A stretch of DNA of 64,000 nt from Myxococcota bacterium (GCA_022710975.1 JAKLGA010000005.1:62001-126000); one strand, 5' to 3'; numbered from the stretch's first letter, positions 4,059-27,295 are shown. A program made the numbers and translations. The notes: generated from the letters alone by a model not told the origin.

Positions 4059-4135
4059 CCTCACCCCCGCCAGTGGCTCGCGATCGAGCTCAGCCTCCCC
4101 CTCTCCCCGCGGGAGAGGGGGTCGGGGGGTGAGGT
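4058..4135. repeat. REP-like cruciform between convergent genes, likely bidirectional terminator
   Basis: An outer inverted repeat (ACCTCACCCCC at 4058-4068 and its complement at 4125-4135) encloses a perfect inner hairpin, CCCCCTCTCCC (4097-4107), loop CGC, GGGAGAGGGGG (4111-4121). This resembles the widespread proteobacterial palindromic repeat that reads as PSPAGRG when translated. It lies exactly between the kinase stop (4058) and the rhomboid gene, and its right half encodes the last residues of the rhomboid (PPTPSPAGRGGG). No T-run follows, so intrinsic termination is plausible but unproven. Confidence 0.75.
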
Positions 4136-5496
4136 CCGTCCTCCGGCTCCGGCTCCGGCTCCGGCTCCGGAAGCGCGGGCACGCCGTCCAGCATGAAGCC
4201 GCACAGGCTGCGCTCCTGGCGCTCGAGCTGGGTGCGCTCGTAGTCGCTCGCGGGCAGCGCCTCGGGCGGGTAGAGGGCGGTCAGCCCCTCGGCCCGGAAC
4301 CTGCGGCACAGGACCTGGCGCTCCGCCAGGCCACGGCAGGTGTCCGCCATGGCGGCCGGCGTGACCAGCGCCTGGCTCTCCTCGTCCACGAACGCGCGCA
4401 GGCGCTCGAGCGCCTCCGCCTGCCGGCCGCGGGCGGCGAGATCGCACGCCTCCAGCATGGGGGCGTAGAGGTTGCCACCCTCGCCGAGCTGCACGCGCCG
4501 CTGGAAGTCCTCGACCGTCTTGCTCTGCGGCGGGACCAGGCACAGCGCCAGGGTCGCCAGCGCGAGCGCCGCGCCGAGCAGGGTCTCCACCACCCGCAGG
4601 CTGGCGTGGGAGGAGCGCTGCAGGTGGGCCGGGCGCATGAGGAAGCCCAGCGCGAAGCCCGCGCCGAAGCCGGTCAGGTGGGCGGCGTGGTCCGCGTTCA
4701 CCAGCAGCCCGAAGATGGTGGTGTACACCGCCCACTTGAACATGAGGTTGCGCACGTTGCGGCCGATGGTGGTGCCGTCGCGCTGGCCCCAGCCCGCGGC
4801 CACCCCGCACAGGCCCATGATGGCGCCCGAGGCGCCGATGCCCACCCCCCGCAGCCCCAGCAGGTAGCTGCCCAGGCTGGCCAGGATGCCGGTCGACATG
4901 AAGAAAAGGAGCATCCGCCCCCGGCCGAAGATGTGCTCGATGGGCGGGCCGATCTGGGTGAGCGCGAACAGGTTGAAGCCCAGGTGCCACAGGCCCGCGT
5001 GCAGGAAGACCGCGCAGGCGAGCCGCCACCACTCCCCCTGCGCCAGGGCCGGGGCGAAGTTGCCGCCGAAGGCGAGCAGGGTGTCCACGCGCAGCGAGAA
5101 CACGCTGTCGGGCCGGCCCTCGCCCAGCACCACCCGCAGGTAGACCAGGACCAGGGCGAAGCCCAGCAGGCTGGAGACCGACAGGAAGGCGGGCAGGCTG
5201 AGCCCGATGCGCCGCAGGACCTGCATGGACCACCAGCCGAGCGCCGCCCCGCAGCCCGAGCAGCGCTTCGCGCCCTCGTCGTTCACCCGCCCGCAGGCCG
5301 GGCAGGTCTTGTGCTTGTAGGTGACGTGATCGACCGAGGTGCGGGCGTCGGCGCGCCGCGCCGCCCAGCCCTGCTGCATCCGCCGCAGCCGCCAGCGCAC
5401 CTGGACCTGGTTCATGCCGACCAGCCCGGCCAGCCGGGTCAGCCTCTCGACCCAGTCCTGCTTCTCGGGCGGCTTGTCCTGGGACTCTCCGGCCAC
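4090..5496 (-). CDS. Rhomboid-family intramembrane serine protease with zinc ribbon
   Basis: Predicted inner-membrane protease of 468 residues that cleaves membrane-spanning substrates. A cytoplasmic zinc ribbon (CPAC...CSGC, residues 65-82) precedes the rhomboid core. The core has HAGLWHLGFN (171-175 region), the catalytic serine in GASG (Ser223) and the catalytic histidine in HAAHLTG (His273), each in membrane helices. A soluble region of about 170 residues follows, ending in an EPEPEP run and a tail encoded by the neighbouring repeat. GTG at 5496 is preferred: GGAGG lies five bases upstream, while the TTG at 5523 has none. The 52 bases between it and the upstream propeller gene suggest possible cotranscription. 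Substrate unknown. Confidence 0.87.
   Translation of the reverse strand: MAGESQDKPPEKQDWVERLTRLAGLVGMNQVQVRWRLRRMQQGWAARRADARTSVDHVTYKHKTCPACGRVNDEGAKRCSGCGAALGWWSMQVLRRIGLSLPAFLSVSSLLGFALVLVYLRVVLGEGRPDSVFSLRVDTLLAFGGNFAPALAQGEWWRLACAVFLHAGLWHLGFNLFALTQIGPPIEHIFGRGRMLLFFMSTGILASLGSYLLGLRGVGIGASGAIMGLCGVAAGWGQRDGTTIGRNVRNLMFKWAVYTTIFGLLVNADHAAHLTGFGAGFALGFLMRPAHLQRSSHASLRVVETLLGAALALATLALCLVPPQSKTVEDFQRRVQLGEGGNLYAPMLEACDLAARGRQAEALERLRAFVDEESQALVTPAAMADTCRGLAERQVLCRRFRAEGLTALYPPEALPASDYERTQLERQERSLCGFMLDGVPALPEPEPEPEPEDGPHPPTPSPAGRGGG
4141..4170 (-). repeat. Five 6-base repeats coding an EPEPEP run
   Basis: Five exact copies of CTCCGG encode alternating Glu-Pro near the C-terminus of the rhomboid protease. 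Such a short perfect repeat can change length by slippage, here without loss of frame. Confidence 0.8.
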
Positions 5497-5501
5497 TCGC
5501 G

Positions 5502-5506
5502 CCTCC
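5502..5506 (-). promoter_or_regulatory. Shine-Dalgarno site deciding the rhomboid GTG start
   Basis: GGAGG on the minus strand, five bases before the GTG at 5496. It supports this start over the longer TTG start. Confidence 0.55.
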
Positions 5507-5576
5507 GCGCAACTCCTCCCCAACCGACGGAAGAGTACGGGAAGTCGCCGGCCGATGCCAGCCCGAGGTCGCCGGC

Positions 5577-8500
5577 TCAGAAGGCGGGGAAGAGACGCTT
5601 GGGATCGAGGATCACCGCGAGGCCGGTCCGGGTCCTCACATGGAGCCAGCCGTTCTCCAGGGAACCGAAGTCCCAGAATTCTTCAGGGAGCTCCACCCGG
5701 CCGAGCTCCTTGCAGGTAGCCTCCTCCCAGAGGCACATCGCCTGACGTTCGCAGGCGCCGACCAACTTACCGCCCAGGCGGACTCCACGAAAGAAGCGTT
5801 CGCCCTCCGGGCAGGCCTTCGGCCTGACGGGGCACTCTCTCGGCGCTCCGTCCTCCACGGCGCGGCAATGCACGGGGCTCGGACCTCCCCGGCCACCGGC
5901 TTCCTGCAGCGAGAGCGTCCCCTGCTCGAGCCGCACGAAGCTGCCCAGGCGCTCCGGGACGCTCCACAGCGCTCTCCCGGTCGCTGGATCGATCCGCTCG
6001 AGCGCGATCGCGCCCTCGGGCTGCCGGAAGGCGACGATGAGATCCTTGCCGAGCAGGGGCGTGCCCGCGCTACCCATCTGGTCGGATCCGAAGACCGACG
6101 CCACCCTCCAGCGCTCCTGGCCCGTAGAAGCCTCGAGGGCCAGGAGCTCGCCCGCCGCCAAGGGGAACACGACCAGATCTCCATACAGGCTCAGCCTGCG
6201 CTGTCTGGAGGACAGCGGGCCCACCCGCCAGCGCTCCTTGCCGGAGGCCGGGTCCAGGGAGTGGAGGTAGAAGTAGCCCGCGGTCTTCCATTGGTGCCTG
6301 TCCCCATCGTTGGCGCTGATCGCCAGCAGGTGATCCCCGACGGACCGCGGGCTTTCGGCGGACCGTTGCCCACTCACCGCACGCCAGACCTCGCGGCCCG
6401 TGCGAGCCTCCAGCGCAATCCAGCTTCCACCCCGGGTGCCGAAGATCAGGCGCTTGCCTAACTCGACGGGCTTGTCAGGAACGAGGCCCGGGTTGGACCA
6501 CTCCCAGGACGGCTTGCCGGTGGCGCCGTCATAGGCCCGGATCACCCCCTGGCTGTCGCCGAGCACGATGTGTCCATCAGCCCACACCGGCCAGAAGGCG
6601 GGCTCCTCCCCGACCTGGGCCGTGAGCACCGCGGGCCAGGGCCGCTCGGCCATCTCGACCGCATGCACCCGTCCGTGCAAGGTGGAGAGCAGCATGCGCT
6701 CGCCCGCGATGTGTGGCGCCCCGTTGATCATCTCGCCGATCTCGTACTTCCACAGCTCGCGGCCCGTGTCTCGCTCGAGCACGTGCAGCACCCCTCGCGT
6801 GTCGGCCACCAGCAGCCGATCCCGGAGAAGCAACGGAGGTGCCATCCAGGGCCTTGGTTCGCCATCGGGCGACCGATCCTGGAGGCCGCCGAACCGCCAC
6901 CGCTCGGCCCCTGTGGCCAGATCGAGAGCCAGGATGCCCTCGCCCTGACCAAGCCACACGAACCCATCCCCGGCGGCCATGGCCGAGCCGGGCCCGGGCA
7001 GGGCCGCCTTCTCCCAGCGGACCTTGCCGGTGCGCGGGTCGATCGCGCGCAGCCTCTCGGCAGGGCTACGCACGATCCAGGCGTCCTGGGCCACGGCGAG
7101 CCCCCTCACGCTTCCGCCCGCGTCGAAGGTGCCCGCGCGCTTCCCGCTCTTCAGGACGAGGGCCACGACCCCGCCCTCGCGCGTGGACACCACGACCCGC
7201 GCGCCCTCCGCCCTCACGATGTCCACCCGCGCACCCGCATCGGCCTTCCACCGGGAACGCCCCGTGGCCGGATCGACGAGCTCCAAGGAACCGCCCGGAC
7301 CGGCCAGGACCACCCCTGCGGGCGTGACGAGCTTGGCCTCCTGATCGGGAGTCCGCCGGCTCCAGAGGGTCTTGCCCTCCACGCACCCGAGGCCGACGCT
7401 CCACCCTTCACCGCTCGCGACGACCGCCCCAGCCGCGGGCAGCAGCCGCCTGACCGGCCCCTCTGCGACCTTGCGCGTCCAGAGCGGCGCGCCGGTGGCC
7501 GCGTTCAGCGCCATCACGGTCCCGTCCTCGCGCCCGGCCAGGACGGCCTCGCCGCAGCCCACCGCGGGGGCGGTCATGCGTCCCCCCGAGGAGAACACTT
7601 TCTCGGCCTGGCCGCTCGCGGGATCGATCGACCACAGCCCACCCAGCCAGCCCCCCAGGATCCGTCCCCCGACGCAGGACACGGGCAGGACCTGCTGGCC
7701 ACCCTTTCGTAGTGGTATCTCCCAGGCCTGCGCGAGATCCGCGCGCCTCAAGCCGCGCAAGCGTGCATCCTCACCGCGCCGGTCGGGGTACTCGATCTTC
7801 ACCACGAAGTCGCCGCACATCGCCGGCTGCTCGAATCCCGAGCGACCTTGCTCGGCCGGCGGTGACTTGGCTCGCACCTCGCCCGTCGCGGCGTCCAGGA
7901 GCGACAGGTCGGTGAAGCTCGCCACGAGCACCCTGTCGCCAGCGAGCTGCAGGCCGGTGGGCGTCCTCACGGCGCGCTGCCAGAGCGGCCTGCCGTCCTC
8001 GGCCGCGAGCGCATGGACCGCCCCCTCGAAGGAGAAGACGAGCCTGTCCCGGCCGGCCCGAAGGAAGTCAGCGCCTGGTCTCCCCGCCAGCGCCTCGAGC
8101 GGCTTGCGCCACAGCACCCTTCCATCCTTGGCGTCCAGGGCGCACACCACCCGGGCCTCGCAAGGTACGAAGACCCGCCCTCCAGCCGTGGCCAGGCAGC
8201 CCCGGCAGATCGACTGCAGAGCTGCGGTCGATCTCCAGCGCAACCGACCATCCAGTGGCTCGAGCGCCTCGAGATTCCCGTCGCGGCCCACGTTGAGCGC
8301 GGCGTCCTCGAGCACCTCGAGCTCCTCCAGACCCGTCCCGTGCGACTCCCGGCGCCAGACCTCGACGCCCGTGCTGGCATCCAGGGCGATCAACTTCCCG
8401 TTGCAGGAGACCAGCACCCGGTCCGCGACCCTGGCAAGCCGCAGCATGTGATCCAGACCCACAGGTTGCTGCCAGACCACGCGGTGGCTGGCGCGGTCGA

Positions 8501-8702
8501 GGGCCAGCACCTGGCCCGAGCTGGTGCCGATATACATGCGCTCCGCGTCCACGGCCGGCTGGCAGATCACGTCGTCGACCAGGGTCGCGCTCCAGGCCTT
8601 CCGCGGCTGCTCCAGCCCCCGGATCTCCAGGGCGAAGGAGGCGACCGGCGACCAGCCCAGCCACACGACCGCCAGCGCGATCACGGCACGACTGATCATC
8701 AT
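5577..8702 (-). CDS. Large exported PQQ-type beta-propeller protein
   Basis: Exported protein of 1041 residues with an N-terminal signal peptide (hydrophobic to about residue 23, ending SFALE). The rest is built of repeated beta-propeller blades of the PQQ-binding-like/BamB type: units such as LDAxTGxxxWRR and ALDLATGAERWRF recur from about residue 30 to the end, enough for more than one propeller. No catalytic quinoprotein dehydrogenase motifs were recognised, so a binding or scaffold role is more likely. Its start overlaps the stop of the upstream gene by four bases (ATGA), so the two are coupled and may act together. Function not recognised beyond the fold. Confidence 0.8.
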   Translation of the reverse strand: MMISRAVIALAVVWLGWSPVASFALEIRGLEQPRKAWSATLVDDVICQPAVDAERMYIGTSSGQVLALDRASHRVVWQQPVGLDHMLRLARVADRVLVSCNGKLIALDASTGVEVWRRESHGTGLEELEVLEDAALNVGRDGNLEALEPLDGRLRWRSTAALQSICRGCLATAGGRVFVPCEARVVCALDAKDGRVLWRKPLEALAGRPGADFLRAGRDRLVFSFEGAVHALAAEDGRPLWQRAVRTPTGLQLAGDRVLVASFTDLSLLDAATGEVRAKSPPAEQGRSGFEQPAMCGDFVVKIEYPDRRGEDARLRGLRRADLAQAWEIPLRKGGQQVLPVSCVGGRILGGWLGGLWSIDPASGQAEKVFSSGGRMTAPAVGCGEAVLAGREDGTVMALNAATGAPLWTRKVAEGPVRRLLPAAGAVVASGEGWSVGLGCVEGKTLWSRRTPDQEAKLVTPAGVVLAGPGGSLELVDPATGRSRWKADAGARVDIVRAEGARVVVSTREGGVVALVLKSGKRAGTFDAGGSVRGLAVAQDAWIVRSPAERLRAIDPRTGKVRWEKAALPGPGSAMAAGDGFVWLGQGEGILALDLATGAERWRFGGLQDRSPDGEPRPWMAPPLLLRDRLLVADTRGVLHVLERDTGRELWKYEIGEMINGAPHIAGERMLLSTLHGRVHAVEMAERPWPAVLTAQVGEEPAFWPVWADGHIVLGDSQGVIRAYDGATGKPSWEWSNPGLVPDKPVELGKRLIFGTRGGSWIALEARTGREVWRAVSGQRSAESPRSVGDHLLAISANDGDRHQWKTAGYFYLHSLDPASGKERWRVGPLSSRQRRLSLYGDLVVFPLAAGELLALEASTGQERWRVASVFGSDQMGSAGTPLLGKDLIVAFRQPEGAIALERIDPATGRALWSVPERLGSFVRLEQGTLSLQEAGGRGGPSPVHCRAVEDGAPRECPVRPKACPEGERFFRGVRLGGKLVGACERQAMCLWEEATCKELGRVELPEEFWDFGSLENGWLHVRTRTGLAVILDPKRLFPAF

Positions 8703-10690
8703 TCACGTCCTCCTGAACCAGGCTCGCCGGTGCTCTCGTCGAGGACCAGGACGAACACGCCCTTGGGAATCTTGCCCAGGTGTTTCAGTGGTCCCTCGCC
8801 GACGGGGTGAAGGCCCCACCACTCGCTCGATGACAGCACCCACGCGCTCCGCCTGTGGATGCCGTGGTCCATCCCGGTGAGCAGGAAGTTTCGAGGGGCA
8901 GCCCGCAAGGCCGCCACCTCCGGGAAGCGGGACGCCTCATCGCGCTCGCGCCGTTCGAGCTCCTCGAGCTGTCGCGGCGAGCCGCCGAGGCACTGCAAGG
9001 GACCTCTGCCCCGCTGGACGAGCAGGGCGAGTTGCCTGCCGGGCAGCGGCGTACGGGAGTTCGCGAAGCGACCGAGCACGATCTCCACCTCCAGATCCCT
9101 GGCGGTGCGCTTGGCAACCCGTGCCTCGGTGATCTTCCATTCTGGGTCGAGCGCCGGCGCGCAGGATTCTGCCGCTCGCCAACGCGCCGGCCCGGAGGGT
9201 CCGAGCCTGACCAGGTGGAACCGTGGGCCAGGCTCGTGGCCCGTGGCACGGCGGCGCGCGCCCCAGGGATCAAGGGAAGAACGGCCCGGGCGGAGCTCCC
9301 CCAGCACCAGCGCCTCGCCCCCTTCGGCAAGCGCGATCGAGATGGGCTCCCAGCCCTCGGGGCAATCGAATCCCTGCAGCCAGCTCACCTCGCCCTCGCC
9401 GGAGAAGCGCGCCACGAAGCCGCACACGGCACCGTGGCAGGTCACCTTGCGGGCGAAAGGCGCACCGGGCGCCAGGATCATCTCCCCCGTGAAGAGGCCA
9501 GCCCCCAGCGCAGCTCCATCGGGCAGGGCGGCTATCGCGGCCAGGGCAGAAGACTCCGCATGGCTCAGGTTGGTGTTCGGCGGCGAGGTCCCTGTGGCCC
9601 CGACCAGCCAGGCGATCTCTCCAGCGGGCGTGAGCTTCATGAGCAGCGCCTGGCTGCCGCCGTGGAACACGAGGTTGGGTGAGAATTCCACGCAGCCCGA
9701 GCTCGCGGACATCAGCGCGCCCTGGCCTGCCAGCCAGATGGACCCATCCGGTCCCACGGCGACCTTCGCCGAGCGGTCCGCGAGGGGGAGATTCACGCGG
9801 ATCCAGCCTGGCAACGATCCCTGCCCTGGCGCAAGCCTGTTCAGTAAACGTGAACCTGAAGCATTCTCGAGAAACGCGATCTTGTCTCCCTGCGAGCTCC
9901 TGAAAGGCGGGTCGTCCCCGGCCAGCGCGAGGAGCTGTCGGCGCGTCTCGATAGCCCCGGCGAAGTCATGGCAGCGCTCCTGGAGCTCGGCCAGCGACAG
10001 CCCCAGCAGCGGATTCGCCTGCCGTGGGTCCCAGACTTTCTGCAGGAACTCCCGTGCATCGGACCAGCGCCCTTCCGAGAGCAACGACCGGGCGAGGTGG
10101 ACATCGGCCTCATCCCGATCGGCAATCCAGGTGGCGTGCTGGCCGTCGACAGCCAGGAGCTGGTCGGAGACTCTCCTCGCCAGACGGGTGAGAGCGCGGT
10201 CGATGGCGAAGCGAGCACACAGGACCTCCTCGGAGGCCACGCTCAGAAGACTCTCACCATGTCCGCGGCTCACCTCGAGCCTGCAGCTGTCCACCCTCAA
10301 GCTATGGAGTCGGACAACCAAAGGCGACGTCACGCCGGCGGCCTTGGAGCACTCGAGCATGCAAGGCGTTCGAGCATACTCACACTTGGGAGGGTCTCGC
10401 CTGGTGGCGCAGCCCTTTCGCTCCAGGCAGTCCGTCACGCAAGCAACGATGGGCTCCTGGTCTGCGAATCGAAGCCTGCCGTCCCGTGCCAGGATGGACT
10501 GGAATGTCCTGGCAACGGTCTCGAGGCCGCCAGGCCCAAGTGGTTCCCGCGCATCGCACAACGCCAGCACGACCGATTGCGGCCCGTCCTGGCCGGCGGC
10601 GACCCGAGGTGCGTCGAGCCCCAGCGACCAGAGCGCGAGGCACAGCCAGGACAATCCCCGCCGGTCCCGAGATCCAGGCTCCCTTCCCAT
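8699..10690 (-). CDS. Exported Cys-containing protein coupled to the propeller gene
   Basis: Exported protein of 663 residues, not recognised. The N-terminus has Arg residues then a hydrophobic stretch (LSWLCLALWSLGL), a likely signal peptide. A Cys-rich patch (CVTDCLERKGC...CEYARTPCMLEC) lies near residues 80-115, a helical TPR-like patch near 195-260, and propeller-like strands (such as GPDGSIWLAGQGAL) further on. ATG at 10690 has GGGAGG six bases upstream; the GTG at 10696 directly abuts that site, so it is disfavoured. The coupled downstream gene encodes a large propeller protein. Possible function: surface or periplasmic assembly, inference only. Confidence 0.72.
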   Translation of the reverse strand: MGREPGSRDRRGLSWLCLALWSLGLDAPRVAAGQDGPQSVVLALCDAREPLGPGGLETVARTFQSILARDGRLRFADQEPIVACVTDCLERKGCATRRDPPKCEYARTPCMLECSKAAGVTSPLVVRLHSLRVDSCRLEVSRGHGESLLSVASEEVLCARFAIDRALTRLARRVSDQLLAVDGQHATWIADRDEADVHLARSLLSEGRWSDAREFLQKVWDPRQANPLLGLSLAELQERCHDFAGAIETRRQLLALAGDDPPFRSSQGDKIAFLENASGSRLLNRLAPGQGSLPGWIRVNLPLADRSAKVAVGPDGSIWLAGQGALMSASSGCVEFSPNLVFHGGSQALLMKLTPAGEIAWLVGATGTSPPNTNLSHAESSALAAIAALPDGAALGAGLFTGEMILAPGAPFARKVTCHGAVCGFVARFSGEGEVSWLQGFDCPEGWEPISIALAEGGEALVLGELRPGRSSLDPWGARRRATGHEPGPRFHLVRLGPSGPARWRAAESCAPALDPEWKITEARVAKRTARDLEVEIVLGRFANSRTPLPGRQLALLVQRGRGPLQCLGGSPRQLEELERRERDEASRFPEVAALRAAPRNFLLTGMDHGIHRRSAWVLSSSEWWGLHPVGEGPLKHLGKIPKGVFVLVLDESTGEPGSGGRE

Positions 10691-10796
10691 GCTCACCCTC
10701 CCGAATGCCCCGGCCCCGCGACGCGCGCACCGACACCCCGGCGTGAACCCGCTCCTCGCCCCACCGATGAGTATAGTCCAGCAGAGAGAACCGCGG

Positions 10797-11390
10797 TCAG
10801 CCCTTCTCGCCGATCTCCAGCCCGGCCGCGAAGGCCTGGCGGTTCTGGGGCAGGGCCTTTTTAGGGACGCTCTCCTCGATCACCTGGAGGAGCGTCTCCC
10901 GCGGGAAGGGCAGCGCGATCGCGCCGGCCAGCACGCCCAGCATCACGGTGTTGACCGCCTGGCCCGAGCCGGCCTTCTGCGCCACCTCCGCGGCGTCCAG
11001 CGCGACGAGCCGCGGGGTGACCTTACGCACCTCGGCCAGGAGATCCTCCACCTGCGGGTACTCGCTGCCCTCCAGCGACACGGTGAAGGGGATGATGCAG
11101 CGGGTGTTCACGATGACCAGCGTCTGCGGCCCGGCCTTGGCCAGAGCCCGGACCGCCTCCACCGGCTCGAAGCCGAGCAGCACGTCCGCGCGGCCGTCCG
11201 AGATGATCGGGCCCCGGGCGCCGCCGATGCGCACGGTGGACTCCACCACCCCGCCGCGCTGGGCCATGCCGTGGATCTCCCCCACCACGACCTCGAGCCC
11301 GGCCCGGGTGGCGGCCTCCCCCAGGATGCGGGAGGCGGTCAGGCTGCCCTGGCCGCCCACGCCGGAGATGCAGATGTCGAGCTTCGGCAT
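10797..11390 (-). CDS. iorB: Indolepyruvate:ferredoxin oxidoreductase beta subunit
   Basis: Gamma-domain-type subunit of a 2-oxoacid:ferredoxin oxidoreductase, 197 residues, the usual length. GVGGQGSLTASRILGEAA near the N-terminus and GEIHGMAQRGGVVES are characteristic of IorB. With IorA it converts indolepyruvate and other aryl pyruvates from amino-acid transamination to the acyl-CoA, CO2 and reduced ferredoxin. The gene begins nine bases after the IorA stop, with AGGAG before its ATG, so the two form an operon. Confidence 0.93.
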   Translation of the reverse strand: MPKLDICISGVGGQGSLTASRILGEAATRAGLEVVVGEIHGMAQRGGVVESTVRIGGARGPIISDGRADVLLGFEPVEAVRALAKAGPQTLVIVNTRCIIPFTVSLEGSEYPQVEDLLAEVRKVTPRLVALDAAEVAQKAGSGQAVNTVMLGVLAGAIALPFPRETLLQVIEESVPKKALPQNRQAFAAGLEIGEKG

Positions 11391-11399
11391 GCCGCGCTC

Positions 11400-14300
11400 C
11401 TACCCTCGCCCGGCCGGCTCGGCCACGGGCTGGATGGCGTCGTTGGGGCAGAGCTGGGCGCAGATGCCGCAGCCCACGCACAGGGCCTCGTCGATGTAGA
11501 TCTTGCCCTCGCGCCGGAAGATGGCCGGGCAGCCGAAGTTGTCGATGCAGTTGTTGCAACGCCCGCACTGGCCGCAGCTCAGGCAGCGCAGCGCCTCCGC
11601 CCGCGCCTGGGCCTCGGTGAGCCCGCCGACCGCCGGCTCGAAGTCGCGGGCGCGCGCGGCGGCCTCCCGCTCGGCGGGCGCGGCCCGGGCCGCGGCCCGC
11701 ACGGCGGCGGGGTGGTAACGCGCCCCGTCCGGACCGAGCTCGTCCGGGCCGTGCAGGACCACGGGCCGCCCGGCGGCCGCGCCGGCGAGCGCCTGATCGA
11801 TGCCCCAGGCCGCCACCCGGCCGGAGGCGATAGCCGCCACCACCGTGACCGGGCCGGTGACCGCGTCGCCGGCGGCGAACACCCGCGGGTGCGAGGTCCG
11901 GCCGGTGCCTGGCTCCACGCGGAGCTCCCCGCGCTCGGTCCGCGCGAGCGCCAGGTCGTCTCGCAGGAGCTCCTGCTCCACGGCCTGGCCCACCGCCAGG
12001 ATGACCTGGTCCGCGGGCTGCTCGGCCTCCGAGCCGGCCACCACGACCGGGCGCCGGCGGCCGCTCGCGTCCACCCCCGCGAGCTCGGTGCGCGCCACGC
12101 GCAGCGCGCGCAGCTTCTCGCCCTCGGCCAGGAACGCGACCGGCACCGCCAGCGGGTGCAGGCGCACGCCCTCGGCCAGGGCCGCGCGCACCTCCTCGGG
12201 CGAGGCGGGCATCTCCTCGGCCGAGCGGCGGTAGAGGATCTCGACCGACTCCGCGCCCAGCCTGCGGGCCGTGCGGGCCGCGTCGAGGGCCGCGTCGCCC
12301 CCGCCCACCACCACCACCCGCCGCCCGACCCGGCGCTCCTCGCCCAGGTTCACCCGGCGCAGGAAGGCGAGCGCGTCGTCGATCCCCCGGGCGTCCTCGC
12401 CGGCCAGCCCCAGGCGCAGCCCGCGCCAGGCGCCCACCGCCAGGCACACGGCCTGGAAGCCCTGCGCGAGCAGCCCCTGGAGCTTGAAGTCGCGCCCCAG
12501 CGCGGCCCCGGTGCGCAGGCGGACGCCGACCGCGAGCAGCGCCTCCAGCTCCTGCGCCAGCACGTCCCGCGGCAGCCGGTAGGCCGGGATGCCGAGGGCC
12601 AGCATCCCGCCGGCGAGCGCCTCGCGCTCGAAGAGCTCGACCTGGTAGCCGCGCAGCTGCAGCTCCCAGGCCGCGCTCAGCCCGGCCGGCCCGGCGCCGA
12701 TCACCGCCACCCGCTCCGCCCGCGGGCGGATGCCCGCCTTCAGCCCCTGCCACCAGGCCTGGCGCTCGGCCGGGCTCTCCTGCTCGGCCACGAAGCGCTT
12801 GATGCCGTTGATGTCCACCGCCCCCTCGTAGTCGCCCCGCACGCAGCGGGCCTCGCACGGGTGGTGGCACACGTGCCCCAGCACGAGCGGCAGCGGCACG
12901 GCCTCGCGGATGAGCGCCAGGGCCTCGCGGTGGCGGCCCGCCCGGGCCAGCGAGATGTAGCCGAAGGCGCACACGTTGGCCGGGCAGGCGAACGAGCAGG
13001 GCGCGGCCGGCATCTTGGCCTCGGCGCCCTGCAGCCCGGGGAACGGGCCGCACCCGGCCGGCATGCGCAGGCTCTCCAGCTTCGTCCGCGCGCGCAGGAT
13101 CTCGTCGTCGTGCAGGACCGGCACGCCGCAGGGCTCGTGGGAGGCGTGCGTGCCGCAGTACTTGCAGCGGGCGGGATCCACGGCGTAGGTCAGGCGCTCG
13201 GCCTTCACCCCGCTCTTTCGCAGGTACAGCGGGCAGGCGTGGCGGCTGATGACCACCCGCACACCCTGGCGACGGTAGGCGCCCTGCAAGGCCGCGATGG
13301 CGGCCTGCAGGTCGCCGTTGTCCACGACGGTCAGATCCTCGACCCCCAGCCCGCGCACCACGCGCTCGAGGTCCAGCTTGCTGCTGCCCTCGAGGCAGCA
13401 CTCGGTGCCCGGGTGGGGCTGGTGCCCGGTCATGGCGGTGGTCGAGTTGTCCAGGATGACCAGCATGAGCTCGTGGCCGTTGTGCACGGCGTTGGCCAGG
13501 CCCGTGAGCCCGCTGTGGAAGAAGGTCGAGTCGCCGATGAAGGCCACGATCTTCTGCGGGTTGTGGATCGAGGCGCCCTGGGCCTGGGTGACGCTCGAGC
13601 CCATGCACAGGAAGGAGTCCACCGTGCTCATGGGCGGCAGGAGCCCCAGGGTGTAGCAGCCGATGTCGCTGGCGAAGTAGGTGTCCGGCTCGGCCACGCT
13701 CTTGATGGCGTAGTAGGTGTTCCTGTGGCTGCAGCCGGCGCACAGCATGGGCGGCCGGCTGGGGAGCCTGGGCAACGCCCTCGCGGGCGCGGGCGGGAGC
13801 TCGCGGCCCAGCAGCCGGGCCACGGCCGGGCGGATGCGATCCGGCGACAGCTCGTACATGCGCGGGATGCCCCGCTCGCCCTTGCCCTCGATGAGCACCG
13901 CGCGGCCGAGCTCCTGGGCCAGGGCGCGCAGCTCGGTCTCGAGGTAGGGCTCGAGCTCCTCGACCACCAGCACCTTCTTGCAGGCGCGCAGCAGCTCCTC
14001 GAGCCTCCGCCGGGGCAGCGGGTGGATGGAGCCGACCACGAGCACCCGCACCTGGTCCGCGGCGCCGAGCTCCTCGAGCACCTCGCGCACGTAGCTCGCG
14101 GACACGCCCGAGGTGACGATGCCGAGCTCGCCCCGGTCGCCCTCCACCCGGTTCCAGGGCAGCTCGTCCACCACCGCGGCCAGGCGCTCGGCCCGCTCGA
14201 GCTGCTTGGGCCGCAGGCGGTACGCCACGGCCGGGACCGGCACCCAGCGGGAGGGCTCCTTGACGAAGTGGCCGGCGAAACGCCGGGGCTCCATGGCGCC

Positions 14301-14852
14301 GAAGGAGACCACCCCGCGGGAGTGGTTGACGCGCGTGGTGGTGCGCAGGAGCACCGCCGTGCCGAAGCGCTCGCTCAGGCGGAAGGCCTCCCGGGTCATC
14401 TCCAGGGCCTCCTGCGGGCTGCCGGGCTCGAGCATGGGCAGCAGGGAGAGCTTCGCGTACCAGCGGTTGTCCTGCTCGTTCTGGCTGGAGTGCAGGCCCG
14501 GGTCGTCGGCGGTGACGATCACGAACCCGGCCCGCACTCCGGTGTAGGCCAGGGTGTTGAGCGGATCGGAGGCCACGTTCAGGCCGACGTGCTTCATGCT
14601 GACCATGGCGCGCATGCCGGCGATGGCCGCCCCGGCCGCCACCTCGAAGGCCACCTTCTCGTTGGTGGAGTACTCGAAGTAGAGATCGCTCTTCTGGCTG
14701 AGCTCGTGGAAGGTGTCGGCGATCTCCGAGGACGGCGTGCCCGGGTAGGCGCAGGCCACGGCGAGCCCCGCCTCGAGCGCGCCCCGCACGATGGCCTCGT
14801 TCCCCAGGAGCAGCGCCCGCGTCCCGGCCTCGCCCTTCAGCAGCAGATCCAT
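11400..14852 (-). CDS. iorA: Indolepyruvate:ferredoxin oxidoreductase alpha subunit fused to GltD-like flavoprotein
   Basis: Fusion of 1150 residues. Residues 1-560 are IorA: an N-terminal TPP pyrimidine domain (AYPGTPSSEIADTF), a middle domain, and the TPP-pyrophosphate domain (CAGCSHRNTYYA near 370; GDST...VILDN at 440-470). A short Cys patch (CKYCGTHASHEPCG, about 563) follows. Residues 615-1075 resemble GltD/NfnB-type small subunits: CSFACPANVC and CHHPCEARC for Fe-S, VAVIGAGPAGLSAA for FAD (about 715), and VVVVGGGDAALDAAR for NAD(P) (about 847). The C-terminus has a ferredoxin-like part with CLSCGQCGRCNNC and CVGCGICAQLCP. ATG 14852 is chosen because GAGGTGA lies five bases upstream; a GTG at 14861 is possible. 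Normal IorA is about 600 residues with a ferredoxin tail. The extra flavoprotein suggests direct electron transfer between ferredoxin and NAD(P), which is inference. Confidence 0.9.
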   Translation of the reverse strand: MDLLLKGEAGTRALLLGNEAIVRGALEAGLAVACAYPGTPSSEIADTFHELSQKSDLYFEYSTNEKVAFEVAAGAAIAGMRAMVSMKHVGLNVASDPLNTLAYTGVRAGFVIVTADDPGLHSSQNEQDNRWYAKLSLLPMLEPGSPQEALEMTREAFRLSERFGTAVLLRTTTRVNHSRGVVSFGAMEPRRFAGHFVKEPSRWVPVPAVAYRLRPKQLERAERLAAVVDELPWNRVEGDRGELGIVTSGVSASYVREVLEELGAADQVRVLVVGSIHPLPRRRLEELLRACKKVLVVEELEPYLETELRALAQELGRAVLIEGKGERGIPRMYELSPDRIRPAVARLLGRELPPAPARALPRLPSRPPMLCAGCSHRNTYYAIKSVAEPDTYFASDIGCYTLGLLPPMSTVDSFLCMGSSVTQAQGASIHNPQKIVAFIGDSTFFHSGLTGLANAVHNGHELMLVILDNSTTAMTGHQPHPGTECCLEGSSKLDLERVVRGLGVEDLTVVDNGDLQAAIAALQGAYRRQGVRVVISRHACPLYLRKSGVKAERLTYAVDPARCKYCGTHASHEPCGVPVLHDDEILRARTKLESLRMPAGCGPFPGLQGAEAKMPAAPCSFACPANVCAFGYISLARAGRHREALALIREAVPLPLVLGHVCHHPCEARCVRGDYEGAVDINGIKRFVAEQESPAERQAWWQGLKAGIRPRAERVAVIGAGPAGLSAAWELQLRGYQVELFEREALAGGMLALGIPAYRLPRDVLAQELEALLAVGVRLRTGAALGRDFKLQGLLAQGFQAVCLAVGAWRGLRLGLAGEDARGIDDALAFLRRVNLGEERRVGRRVVVVGGGDAALDAARTARRLGAESVEILYRRSAEEMPASPEEVRAALAEGVRLHPLAVPVAFLAEGEKLRALRVARTELAGVDASGRRRPVVVAGSEAEQPADQVILAVGQAVEQELLRDDLALARTERGELRVEPGTGRTSHPRVFAAGDAVTGPVTVVAAIASGRVAAWGIDQALAGAAAGRPVVLHGPDELGPDGARYHPAAVRAAARAAPAEREAAARARDFEPAVGGLTEAQARAEALRCLSCGQCGRCNNCIDNFGCPAIFRREGKIYIDEALCVGCGICAQLCPNDAIQPVAEPAGRG

Positions 14853-14857
14853 GCGCC

Positions 14858-14864
14858 TCACCTC
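14858..14864 (-). promoter_or_regulatory. Shine-Dalgarno site for the IorA fusion
   Basis: A full GAGGTGA on the minus strand, five bases before the ATG at 14852; it overlaps the alternative GTG start and so argues against it. Confidence 0.65.
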
Positions 14865-25198: not shown

Positions 25199-27295
25199 TC
25201 AGGAGCTGGCAGGGGCGAGCGCGATGCGGGCGTCCACGGCCAGGGCCCCCTGGCCCTCGGCCCCGAGCAGGAGCGGGTTCACGTCCAGCTCGGCGATCTC
25301 GGGGCAGGCCTGGACCAGCCCGGCCAGCGCCAGCACGCACTGGCGGAGCGCCGCCAGATCGCGGGGCGCCTGGCCGCGAATGCCCGTGAGCACCGGGTAG
25401 GCCTTGAGGGAGCGCAGCATCTCGTCCACCTCGGCCGCGTCGAAGGGCACCACCCGCATGCTCACGTCGCGCAGCACCTCGACGAACACCCCGCCCAGGC
25501 CGACCAGCACCACGTGCCCGAAGGAGGGATCGCGCCTGGCGCCCAGGATGAGCTCCCGCCCGCCCGGGGGCGCCATGCGCTGCACCTCGACCCGCGGCGC
25601 GCCGCGCACGCCGGCGCGGTCCGCGGCGGCCACGAGGGCCGCGAACCCCTCCCGCACCGCCTCGGGCCCCAGGCAGCCGAGCCGCACCCCGCCCACGTCC
25701 GACTTGTGCGAGGCCTCGGCCGCGTCGAGCTTGAGCGCCACCGGCCCGCCCAGGCTGGCCGCCGCGGCCACGGCCTCCTCCGCGCTGGTCGCCGGGCGCG
25801 ACTCGGCCACCGGCAGGCCCGCGGCCCGCAGCGCCTCCAGGGCCTCCCCCAGCCCCGGGGCCCTGCCCTCGGCCCGGCAGCGCCCGAAGAGGGCCTGCGC
25901 CCGGGCCAGGTCCGGCCCGACCGGCATGGCCGCGGGCGCGGGCCGGGCGTGGTGGCGGAAGTCGCGCACCATCTTCAGCGAGCGGATGGCGTCGTCCGGC
26001 TCGGTGTACACCGGGTGCGGCAGCGTGCGCCGCAGGATGGCCATCTCCTCGAAGTCGGTGGCCACGCAGATGGCCAGCGGCTTGCCGTGCTTGAAACCCA
26101 GCTCCTCGATGCGCCGGAACAGCGCGCGCGAGCGCTCGCTTTCGAGCGCGGCGATGTAGGTGTGCAGGAACACCACCCCGTCCACGTCCGGCAGCTTGAG
26201 GGTCTCCTCGAGGATGTGCAGGTACACGTCGAAGTCGAACAGGTCCCCGAGGTCCAGGGGGTTGGTCAGGTGGATCACGCTGGCCCGGAAGTGCCGCTCG
26301 ATCTCGCGCAGGAAGCTGTCCGGGAAACGGGCCAGGCGGAAGCCCTGCTGCTCGCAGGCGTCCGCGGCGATCACCGCGTGCCCGCCCGAGCGGGACACGA
26401 TGGCCAGCCGGTCGCCCCGCAGGCGCGGCAGCGGCAGCATCTTGAGGTAGTTCACCAGGGTGGTGGCGTCGTCGAAGCGCGCCATGCCCACCTGCGCCAG
26501 GGCGGCCGAGACCACCGCGTCGTCGCCCGACAGCGAGGCGGTGTGGGAGGCGGCGATCTCGCGCGCGAGCTTTCCGGTGTTGGACTTGTGCACCAGGATG
26601 GGCTTGGCCGTGCGCCGCGCGATGTCCATCAGCCGCCGGCCGTCGCTGATGCCCTCCAGGTACAGCACGATGATGTCCGTGTCCGGGTCGTCCACCAGGA
26701 CCTCGAGCAGATCGCACTCGTCCACGTCGAGCTTGTTGCCCAGGCTGGCGAACTTGGACAGCCCCAGGTTCTCGCTGGCCAGCACGTTCAGGTAGGACAG
26801 GCCCACCCCGCCGCTCTGGGACAGGATGCTCACCCGCCCGCGGGCGAACACGTCCTTCAGCCGCGGGAAGGGCACCACCAGGCCGTTCCTGAGGTTGACC
26901 ACCCCGATGCCGTTCGGGCCCAGGAAGCGGATGCCGTGCTTGCGGGCCACCGCCACCACCTGGTCCTGGACGGCCTTGCCCTCGGGGCCGAACTCCTCGA
27001 AGCCGGCGGTCTCGACGATCGCCCGCCGGATGCCCTTCTGCCCGCACTCCTCCAGCACCCCCGGCACGTTCTTGGCGGGCACCAGGATGACCGCCAGGTC
27101 CACCTGGTCGGGCAGGTCGGCCACCGACTTGAAGATGCGCCGCCCGAAGGCGTGCCCGCCGCGGTGGCCCACCTGGTAGATGATGCCGTCGAAGGCGAAC
27201 TCCTGCAGGTTGACCACGATGCTGCGGGCCATGTTCTCGGGCGCGTCGGACACGCCCACCACGACCACGCTGCGCGCGTCGAAGAAACCCCGCAT
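25199..27295 (-). CDS. ADP-forming acyl-CoA synthetase (fused alpha-beta)
   Basis: Enzyme of 698 residues in the NDP-forming acyl-CoA synthetase family, which interconverts acyl-CoA, ADP and phosphate with the acid, CoA and ATP. Order: CoA-binding Rossmann domain (1-130, VVVVGVSD and LGPNGIGVV), ligase domains with the phosphorylated His in SHTASLSG (His251), and an ATP-grasp domain (about 460-690) with ASHKSDVGGV and ELILGARRDPSFGHVVLVGLGG. Such enzymes make ATP from acyl-CoA, so this one could use the products of the indolepyruvate oxidoreductase encoded 10 kb away. It starts three bases after the Sua5-like stop. Substrate is inference. Confidence 0.9.
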   Translation of the reverse strand: MRGFFDARSVVVVGVSDAPENMARSIVVNLQEFAFDGIIYQVGHRGGHAFGRRIFKSVADLPDQVDLAVILVPAKNVPGVLEECGQKGIRRAIVETAGFEEFGPEGKAVQDQVVAVARKHGIRFLGPNGIGVVNLRNGLVVPFPRLKDVFARGRVSILSQSGGVGLSYLNVLASENLGLSKFASLGNKLDVDECDLLEVLVDDPDTDIIVLYLEGISDGRRLMDIARRTAKPILVHKSNTGKLAREIAASHTASLSGDDAVVSAALAQVGMARFDDATTLVNYLKMLPLPRLRGDRLAIVSRSGGHAVIAADACEQQGFRLARFPDSFLREIERHFRASVIHLTNPLDLGDLFDFDVYLHILEETLKLPDVDGVVFLHTYIAALESERSRALFRRIEELGFKHGKPLAICVATDFEEMAILRRTLPHPVYTEPDDAIRSLKMVRDFRHHARPAPAAMPVGPDLARAQALFGRCRAEGRAPGLGEALEALRAAGLPVAESRPATSAEEAVAAAASLGGPVALKLDAAEASHKSDVGGVRLGCLGPEAVREGFAALVAAADRAGVRGAPRVEVQRMAPPGGRELILGARRDPSFGHVVLVGLGGVFVEVLRDVSMRVVPFDAAEVDEMLRSLKAYPVLTGIRGQAPRDLAALRQCVLALAGLVQACPEIAELDVNPLLLGAEGQGALAVDARIALAPASS

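What the first reader, a model, noticed from the sequence alone, without database searches (positions are those of the whole stretch)
11400..14852. IorA fused to a GltD/NfnB-like flavoprotein and an extra ferredoxin domain
One 1150-residue chain holds a complete TPP-dependent IorA, then a GltD-type module with FAD and NAD(P) Rossmann motifs and two N-terminal Cys clusters, then a C-terminal 8-Cys ferredoxin-like part. Usual IorA is about 600 residues and passes electrons to free ferredoxin. A built-in flavoprotein could hand them to NAD(P)+, making the enzyme an indolepyruvate:NAD(P) oxidoreductase or a bifurcating one. IorB follows directly.
Basis: partly seen in the sequence, partly recalled or inferred. 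Interest (0 to 1): 0.75.

Follow-up and report, generated by a model that had tools for sequence, protein, structure and literature searches.

The report
NADP-reductase domain nested inside IorA
An anaerobic bacterium's enzyme for breaking down aromatic amino-acid derivatives, which normally hands its electrons to a separate ferredoxin, carries inside its own ferredoxin part an inserted NADP-reducing flavoprotein, so one protein chain can probably make NADPH directly; the same insertion is conserved in related and unrelated bacteria.

Summary
It is conserved full length (43-69% identity) in 8 of 9 genomes of its class and occurs in scattered Acidobacteriota, Planctomycetota and Chloroflexota assemblies, so it is not an assembly join.

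The anatomy differs from the finding. The C-terminal 8-Cys part is not an extra ferredoxin. It scores as IorA's own ferredoxin domain (45-75 bits against 3-22 for the GltD/DsrL-type tail). The GltD-like flavoprotein is inserted at the first Cys motif of that native domain. In one Bipolaricaulota (Acetothermia) assembly the same parts occur as two genes.

The module is of the NfnB/StnC/DsrL type. It has all [4Fe-4S] ligands, YRR (residues 877-879, NADP(H) specificity) and Lys688, which aligns with StnC Lys170, a non-bifurcating flavin site. Three relatives carry CLE/CIE/CPE instead of YRR, a likely switch to NAD(H). Best reading: arylpyruvate + CoA + NADP+ -> arylacetyl-CoA + CO2 + NADPH without free ferredoxin. 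Bifurcation is disfavoured. No activity is shown.

It is a new variant of a known kind, analogous to eukaryotic pyruvate:NADP+ oxidoreductase, but built from different parts in a different way.

The parts
11400..14852 (-). iorA with nested GltD-like flavoprotein module, one ORF (1150 aa from ATG 14852; GTG 14861 gives 1153 aa)
   Evidence: stop codon at 11400-11402
13182..14819 (-). IorA TPP-dependent core (residues 15-560 of the GTG-numbered chain; POR_N 27-187, TPP_enzyme_C 399-534)
   Evidence: TIGR03336 738.8 bits, cut-off 650.9
13128..13178 (-). Junction: start of IorA's native ferredoxin motif (VDPARC, C566, 17/17) plus C569 and C578 (15/17); insertion point of the flavoprotein
   Evidence: Dehalococcoidia homologues L033/L034 have VDPDKC directly followed by the GltD module
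11778..13007 (-). GltD/NfnB/StnC-like FAD and NAD(P) module with N-terminal 2x[4Fe-4S] ligands C622, C626, C665, C669, C673 (residues 619-1028)
12798..12800 (-). Lys688, equivalent of StnC K170 and of T. maritima NfnB Glu117 (ligand position of the FAD-proximal cluster)
   Evidence: mapping; PMC10482914, PMC7596348; K in 17/17 homologues
12225..12233 (-). Y877-R878-R879, NADP(H)-specificity motif (YRR)
   Evidence: PMC7596348
11574..11675 (-). Permuted N-terminal helix of NfnB/GltD type ending in R-C1093-LS-C1096, expected to complete the distal cluster of the flavoprotein
   Evidence: (weak alignment to residues 9-42 of 4ylf_B)
11424..11567 (-). IorA's native 2x[4Fe-4S] ferredoxin domain (C1099...GCPAI...C1138)
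10797..11390 (-). iorB, POR/gamma-type subunit, 197 aa, 9 bp downstream
   Evidence: (TIGR03334 205.2 bits, cut-off 205.8)

Best explanation
The gene pair encodes a soluble arylpyruvate (2-oxoacid):NADP+ oxidoreductase, CoA-acylating. The IorAB core with TPP decarboxylates arylpyruvates (indole-, phenyl- or hydroxyphenylpyruvate) to arylacetyl-CoA. The low-potential electrons enter IorA's native 2x[4Fe-4S] ferredoxin domain. Instead of going to free ferredoxin they pass through the two [4Fe-4S] clusters and the FAD of a GltD/StnC/DsrL-type module inserted in that domain, and reduce NADP+. A subclade of relatives has probably switched to NAD+. In this anaerobic genome the thioester can be cashed in as ATP by ADP-forming acyl-CoA synthetases. 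Shown by sequence: the architecture, conservation, native ferredoxin, cluster ligands, nucleotide motif and genomic context. Inferred: substrate, electron order, NADP+ as the physiological acceptor, catabolic direction.
For: IOR_alpha equivalog cut-off exceeded. Fusion conserved in 8/9 genomes of the class and present in several phyla. The native ferredoxin domain is kept and the ligands are conserved: 14 of the 16 proposed cluster Cys are present in 17/17 homologues, C631 and C1099 in 15/17. The module's nearest solved relatives all bind NAD(P)(H): NfnABC, StnC, NfnB, GltD, DPD. YRR in 14/17; CLE/CIE/CPE in L018, L038, L035, matching the experimentally supported NADP/NAD determinant of DsrL and NfnB (PMC7596348). 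K688 = StnC K170 and R762 = StnC R239, the non-bifurcating NADPH-linked flavin site (PMC10482914). Class I/II aminotransferase next to the fusion in L031 and L035, acyl-CoA dehydrogenase in L035, L038, L113, L117, pointing to amino-acid catabolism in clade B. Own genome: no COX1, several ADP-forming acyl-CoA synthetase-like proteins over cut-off, one at window 25202-27295, and a separate canonical IorA with IorB, so the fused copy is not the only IOR.
Against: No biochemical data. Clade A (the window's own) has no catabolic neighbour genes. The native ferredoxin domain is still present and could also reduce free ferredoxin. The pTM of 0.71 leaves domain orientation uncertain. C569/C578 at the junction have no assigned role.
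Confidence: 0.72

Rival explanations
1. Flavin-based electron bifurcating or confurcating IOR: the GltD module's FAD splits or joins electrons between the IorA ferredoxin/free ferredoxin and NAD(P).
For: The GltD/NfnB fold hosts the bifurcating FAD in NfnAB, and relatives of the module sit in bifurcating complexes (9bov, 9n5u, 8oh5). Arg762 equivalent to NfnB R201 is kept.
Against: Lys688 replaces the Glu ligand of bifurcating NfnB, as in StnC, whose FAD is non-bifurcating (PMC10482914). No second flavin or NfnA-like subunit is encoded at the locus; the neighbours are iorB and unrelated genes. From general knowledge, oxoacid oxidation to NADP+ is already strongly exergonic and needs no bifurcation.
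Confidence: 0.08
2. The enzyme runs mainly in reverse or as an NADPH-driven reductase: NADPH feeds electrons via the module to the IorA ferredoxin domain, for reductive carboxylation of arylacetyl-CoA or for reducing free ferredoxin.
For: GltD-type modules are reversible; DsrL-2 type YRR enzymes use NADPH as electron donor (PMC7596348).
Against: NADPH is too weak to drive reductive carboxylation unaided (general thermodynamics). Aminotransferase and acyl-CoA dehydrogenase neighbours in clade B point to catabolism. No phenylacetate-CoA ligase over cut-off in the own genome.
Confidence: 0.1
3. The fused protein still uses free ferredoxin as main acceptor and the GltD module is an accessory ferredoxin:NADP+ reductase joined for channeling or for optional routing.
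For: The native ferredoxin domain is intact, and the organism keeps a canonical IorAB as well.
Against: The module is inserted into the ferredoxin motif itself rather than appended, and the whole ligand chain is conserved, suggesting a direct intramolecular path.
Confidence: 0.1

Closest known systems
Indolepyruvate:ferredoxin oxidoreductase IorAB (TIGR03336/TIGR03334)
   Same: TPP core, native C-terminal 2x[4Fe-4S] ferredoxin domain, adjacent iorB; score over the IOR_alpha cut-off
   Different: About 500-residue FAD/NAD(P) module inserted at the first Cys motif of the ferredoxin domain
Pyruvate:NADP+ oxidoreductase (PNO) of Euglena, Cryptosporidium and ciliates (PMC6993867)
   Same: A 2-oxoacid:ferredoxin oxidoreductase fused to a flavoprotein that lets it use NADP+ directly
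   Different: PNO carries a NADPH-cytochrome P450 reductase module fused to PFO; here a GltD/StnC-type Fe-S flavoprotein is nested inside IorA
Phenylglyoxylate:NAD+ oxidoreductase PadEFGHI
   Same: Prokaryotic 2-oxoacid oxidoreductase that reduces NAD+ (Hirsch et al. 1998, cited in PMC5109826); role of PadH as its flavoprotein subunit is from general knowledge
   Different: The PadH model (NF045765) does not match this locus; separate subunits, different oxoacid enzyme subfamily
StnC / NfnA(BC) / NfnB and DsrL GltD-like modules (8oh5, 9bov, 9n5u, 4ylf; PMC10482914, PMC7596348)
   Same: FAD plus NAD(P) Rossmann domains, two N-terminal [4Fe-4S] clusters, YRR motif; with StnC also the Lys ligand position; RCLxC ligands placed after the module as in the solved NfnABC/StnC chains
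   Different: Partner is IorA's own ferredoxin and TPP core, not NuoG-like, DsrAB or NfnA

Membership tests
IorA (IOR alpha, TIGR03336) | Score over the curated equivalog cut-off (650.9) | tested here: met
   738.8 bits
IorA (IOR alpha, TIGR03336) | Native C-terminal 2x[4Fe-4S] ferredoxin domain | tested here: met
   68.8 bits with HMM of 48 canonical IorA ferredoxin domains, 13.9 with PRK12771 tails; controls
IorA (IOR alpha, TIGR03336) | Adjacent iorB subunit | tested here: met
   iorB 9 bp downstream
IorA (IOR alpha, TIGR03336) | Arylpyruvate oxidation with ferredoxin as acceptor | not testable with these tools
   needs assay
GltD-like NAD(P)H Fe-S flavoprotein module (NfnB/StnC/DsrL type) | FAD and NAD(P) glycine motifs, Fer4_20, two [4Fe-4S] ligand sets | tested here: met
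GltD-like NAD(P)H Fe-S flavoprotein module (NfnB/StnC/DsrL type) | YRR motif of NADP(H)-specific members | tested here: met
   Y877 R878 R879
Bifurcating NfnAB | Glu ligand of FAD-proximal cluster | tested here: not met
   Lys688, invariant in 17/17
Bifurcating NfnAB | NfnA-type partner with second flavin at the locus | tested here: not met
   flanking ORFs have no such domain
DsrL / PRK12771 | Score over cut-off and DsrL-type C-terminal ferredoxin | tested here: not met
   470.2 of 516 bits; tail scores 13.9
PadH (phenylglyoxylate dehydrogenase) | Match to NF045765 | tested here: not met
   locus absent from the hits in its own genome
Pyruvate:NADP+ oxidoreductase (PNO) | Flavodoxin/P450-reductase module | tested here: not met
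   no such Pfam domain

The most novel reading that the evidence does not exclude
The same kind of NAD(P) flavoprotein was inserted at the same point of IorA's ferredoxin more than once (window clade A plus clade B, and separately in Dehalococcoidia), a recurrent evolutionary route that converts a ferredoxin-linked oxoacid oxidoreductase into a direct NADP+/NAD+ enzyme, with later switches of nucleotide specificity.
Probability: 0.3. Interest if true: 0.68.

Novelty: new variant of a known kind. Interest (0 to 1): 0.55.

Why it matters
If it reduces NADP+ directly, this is a prokaryotic, single-chain counterpart of eukaryotic pyruvate:NADP+ oxidoreductase, built by nesting a reductase inside a ferredoxin domain. 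It would change predictions of the energy budget for these anaerobes (electrons of about -500 mV are spent on NADPH rather than on ferredoxin-linked ATP or H2). Automated annotation as 'indolepyruvate ferredoxin oxidoreductase' would mis-state the acceptor. It also gives a natural series of YRR and non-YRR versions for testing nucleotide choice, and a fused versus two-gene pair for testing electron transfer.

Tried and rejected
Assembly or frame error: rejected, full-length homologues in independent assemblies. Extra appended ferredoxin: rejected by the HMM test. DsrL/PRK12771-type tail: rejected by the same test. PadH homology: rejected. Multiple origins of the insertion: the IorA-core tree puts the fusions in separate places, but one clade is not rejected (p-AU 0.157 all fusions, 0.306 A+B). 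The module tree joins A and B (98 SH-aLRT) and leaves Dehalococcoidia apart without rejecting one clade (p-AU 0.356). So the number of origins is unresolved. A first search of solved structures with the module used a wrong frame and found nothing; repeated correctly. Literature searches found no description of an IorA-GltD fusion in the held open-access library; subscription papers were not searched. IorA genes without any ferredoxin domain (L073, L077, L087, L091, L096, L098) were checked for a separate GltD gene downstream: none was found.

Full report
WHAT IS THERE. The minus-strand ORF at 11400-14861 (GTG; ATG at 14852 gives the 1150 aa described) is uninterrupted. Residue numbers below count from the GTG; subtract 3 for the ATG. 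Pfam finds POR_N 27-187, TPP_enzyme_C 399-534, Fer4_20 620-696, Pyr_redox_2 717-1014 and Fer4 1121-1144. NCBIfam gives IOR_alpha TIGR03336 at 738.8 bits, above its equivalog cut-off of 650.9, and PRK12771 470 bits, below 516. iorB (POR, 197 aa) starts 9 bp after the stop.

NOT AN ARTEFACT. Searching 58 related genomes found full-length matches of 43-69% identity in 9 further genomes. The class holds 9 genomes and 8 carry exactly one such fusion. The genome collection adds fusions in Acidobacteriota (L031, L038), Planctomycetota (L032, L035) and Chloroflexota/Dehalococcoidia (L033, L034). In L058 (Candidatus Acetothermia, Bipolaricaulota) the same parts are two overlapping genes, 7884-9650 (IorA core) and 9628-11400 (Cys motif, GltD module, IorA ferredoxin), followed by iorB. 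This could be the unfused state, a fission, or less likely an error of that assembly.

THE FERREDOXIN IS NATIVE AND THE FLAVOPROTEIN IS AN INSERT. In the genome scan, ordinary ~620-aa IorAs matched the query both in the core and up to residue 1140-1153. An HMM of 48 canonical IorA ferredoxin domains scores the tails of 17 fusions at 45-75 bits (window 68.8), while an HMM of PRK12771-type tails scores them at 3-22. Controls: the PRK12771 tails score 6-7 bits with the IorA HMM, other ferredoxin-bearing non-IorA ORFs at most 33 (the three higher-scoring rows printed are themselves canonical IorAs that my filter missed), and canonical IorAs score 65-109 against themselves. The PRK12771 HMM rests on 4 close sequences, so its low scores alone are weak evidence; the IorA scores carry the point. 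In Dehalococcoidia the insertion point is visible: VDPDKC, then the module, then DCKICIDLLGCPA, where canonical IorA reads VDxxKCxxCxxCIxxxGCPA. C566 before the insertion is kept in 17/17. I infer that the module is nested in the ferredoxin, or directly in front of it.

LIGANDS. Of the Cys in the module and tail, C622, C626, C665, C669, C673, C1093, C1096, C1102, C1105, C1111, C1128, C1131, C1134 and C1138 are conserved in 17/17; C631 and C1099 in 15/17 (the two Dehalococcoidia differ). C622, C626, C665, C669, C673 align with T. maritima NfnB C47, C51, C90, C96, C100, known cluster ligands (PMC7596348). NfnB's remaining ligands C39/C42 (RCLQC) match C1093/C1096, after the module, by a weak alignment (5.6 bits). 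The NfnABC and StnC chains have RCxxCG at the same place after their module, so this permuted layout is known. This accounts for four [4Fe-4S] clusters; the pairing of Cys into clusters is inference.

NUCLEOTIDE AND FLAVIN SITE. NfnB binds the NADP phosphate with a YRR motif, and its presence separates NADP(H)- from NAD(H)-using DsrL enzymes, with kinetics for three of them (PMC7596348). The window protein has Y877 R878 R879, as do 14 of 17 homologues in all. L018, L038 and L035 have CLE, CIE and CPE, which predicts NAD(H). Lys688 (17/17) aligns with StnC K170 and with NfnB Glu117; Arg762 with StnC R239. StnC's FAD is NADPH-linked and non-bifurcating (PMC10482914). StnC's auxiliary C114 aligns one residue off C631, so I do not claim it as equivalent.

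STRUCTURE MODEL. AlphaFold2 gave mean pLDDT 86.2 and pTM 0.71. The best PDB matches are NfnABC, StnC, NfnI, NfnB, Xfn and GltD (TM-scores normalised by the shorter, single-module chains about 0.8). No coordinates were available, so distances were not measured.

CONTEXT. The window's own clade has only iorAB; neighbours are unrelated or without Pfam match. In clade B the fusion sits with hydantoinase A and B (L031, L035, L038, L117), acyl-CoA dehydrogenase (L035, L038, L113, L117), class I/II aminotransferase (L031, L035) and a methylmalonyl-CoA mutase (L038) (hydantoinase and acyl-CoA dehydrogenase of L035 and L038 were identified by eye from the translations, the others by Pfam). Tested clade B members score just under the IOR_alpha cut-off (592-647 bits), so their substrate may differ. 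The own genome has no COX1, no phenylacetate-CoA ligase over cut-off, seven PF13607 hits over cut-off, one of them at window 25202-27295 with the CoA-binding and ATP-grasp domains of an ADP-forming acyl-CoA synthetase, and a second, canonical IorA with IorB at C1:572580-574990. This fits an anaerobe that ferments amino acids, as known for Pyrococcus IOR plus ADP-forming synthetase (general knowledge).

EVOLUTION. In the module tree clades A and B form one side of a starred branch (98), Dehalococcoidia lie elsewhere, but one clade is not rejected. In the IorA-core tree A, B and D fall apart, again without rejection (p-AU 0.157). At least one insertion with horizontal spread; more than one is possible.

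CONCLUSION. A conserved IorA with a nested NADP-type Fe-S flavoprotein, most likely an arylpyruvate:NADP+ oxidoreductase. It works like PNO and PadEFGHI but belongs to neither. Bifurcation is disfavoured, not excluded. Nothing enzymatic has been shown.

Noticed in passing
L031, L035, L038, L117: Recurrent operon with the clade-B fusion: aminotransferase, IorAB fusion, hydantoinase A and B, acyl-CoA dehydrogenase, in L038 also methylmalonyl-CoA mutase. Pathway unknown; an arylacetyl-CoA is not an obvious acyl-CoA dehydrogenase substrate, so this may be a different 2-oxoacid.
   Followed up: partly
window 13128-13178: Junction Cys C566, C569, C578: C566 in 17/17, the other two in 15/17 fusions; could bind a metal or be remains of the native ferredoxin motif.
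   Followed up: partly
L058:7884-12022: Two-gene version (IorA core, then flavoprotein plus IorA ferredoxin) with iorB in a Bipolaricaulota assembly.
   Followed up: partly
window 25202-27295: ADP-forming acyl-CoA synthetase-like protein (PF13607, ATP-grasp_5) about 10 kb from the fusion; possible partner for arylacetyl-CoA.
   Followed up: partly
L109:7171-9846: Second, canonical IorA of the same genome (522.7 bits, below the IOR_alpha cut-off) in an 892-residue open frame, with its IorB at C1:572580-573128.
   Followed up: partly
window 4093-5523 and L111:4808-6118: A rhomboid protease-like gene lies near the fusion in two genomes of the family.
   Followed up: no
L073, L077, L087, L091, L096, L098: IorA proteins of about 570 aa that lack the C-terminal ferredoxin domain altogether; in most of them iorB follows directly.
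   Followed up: partly
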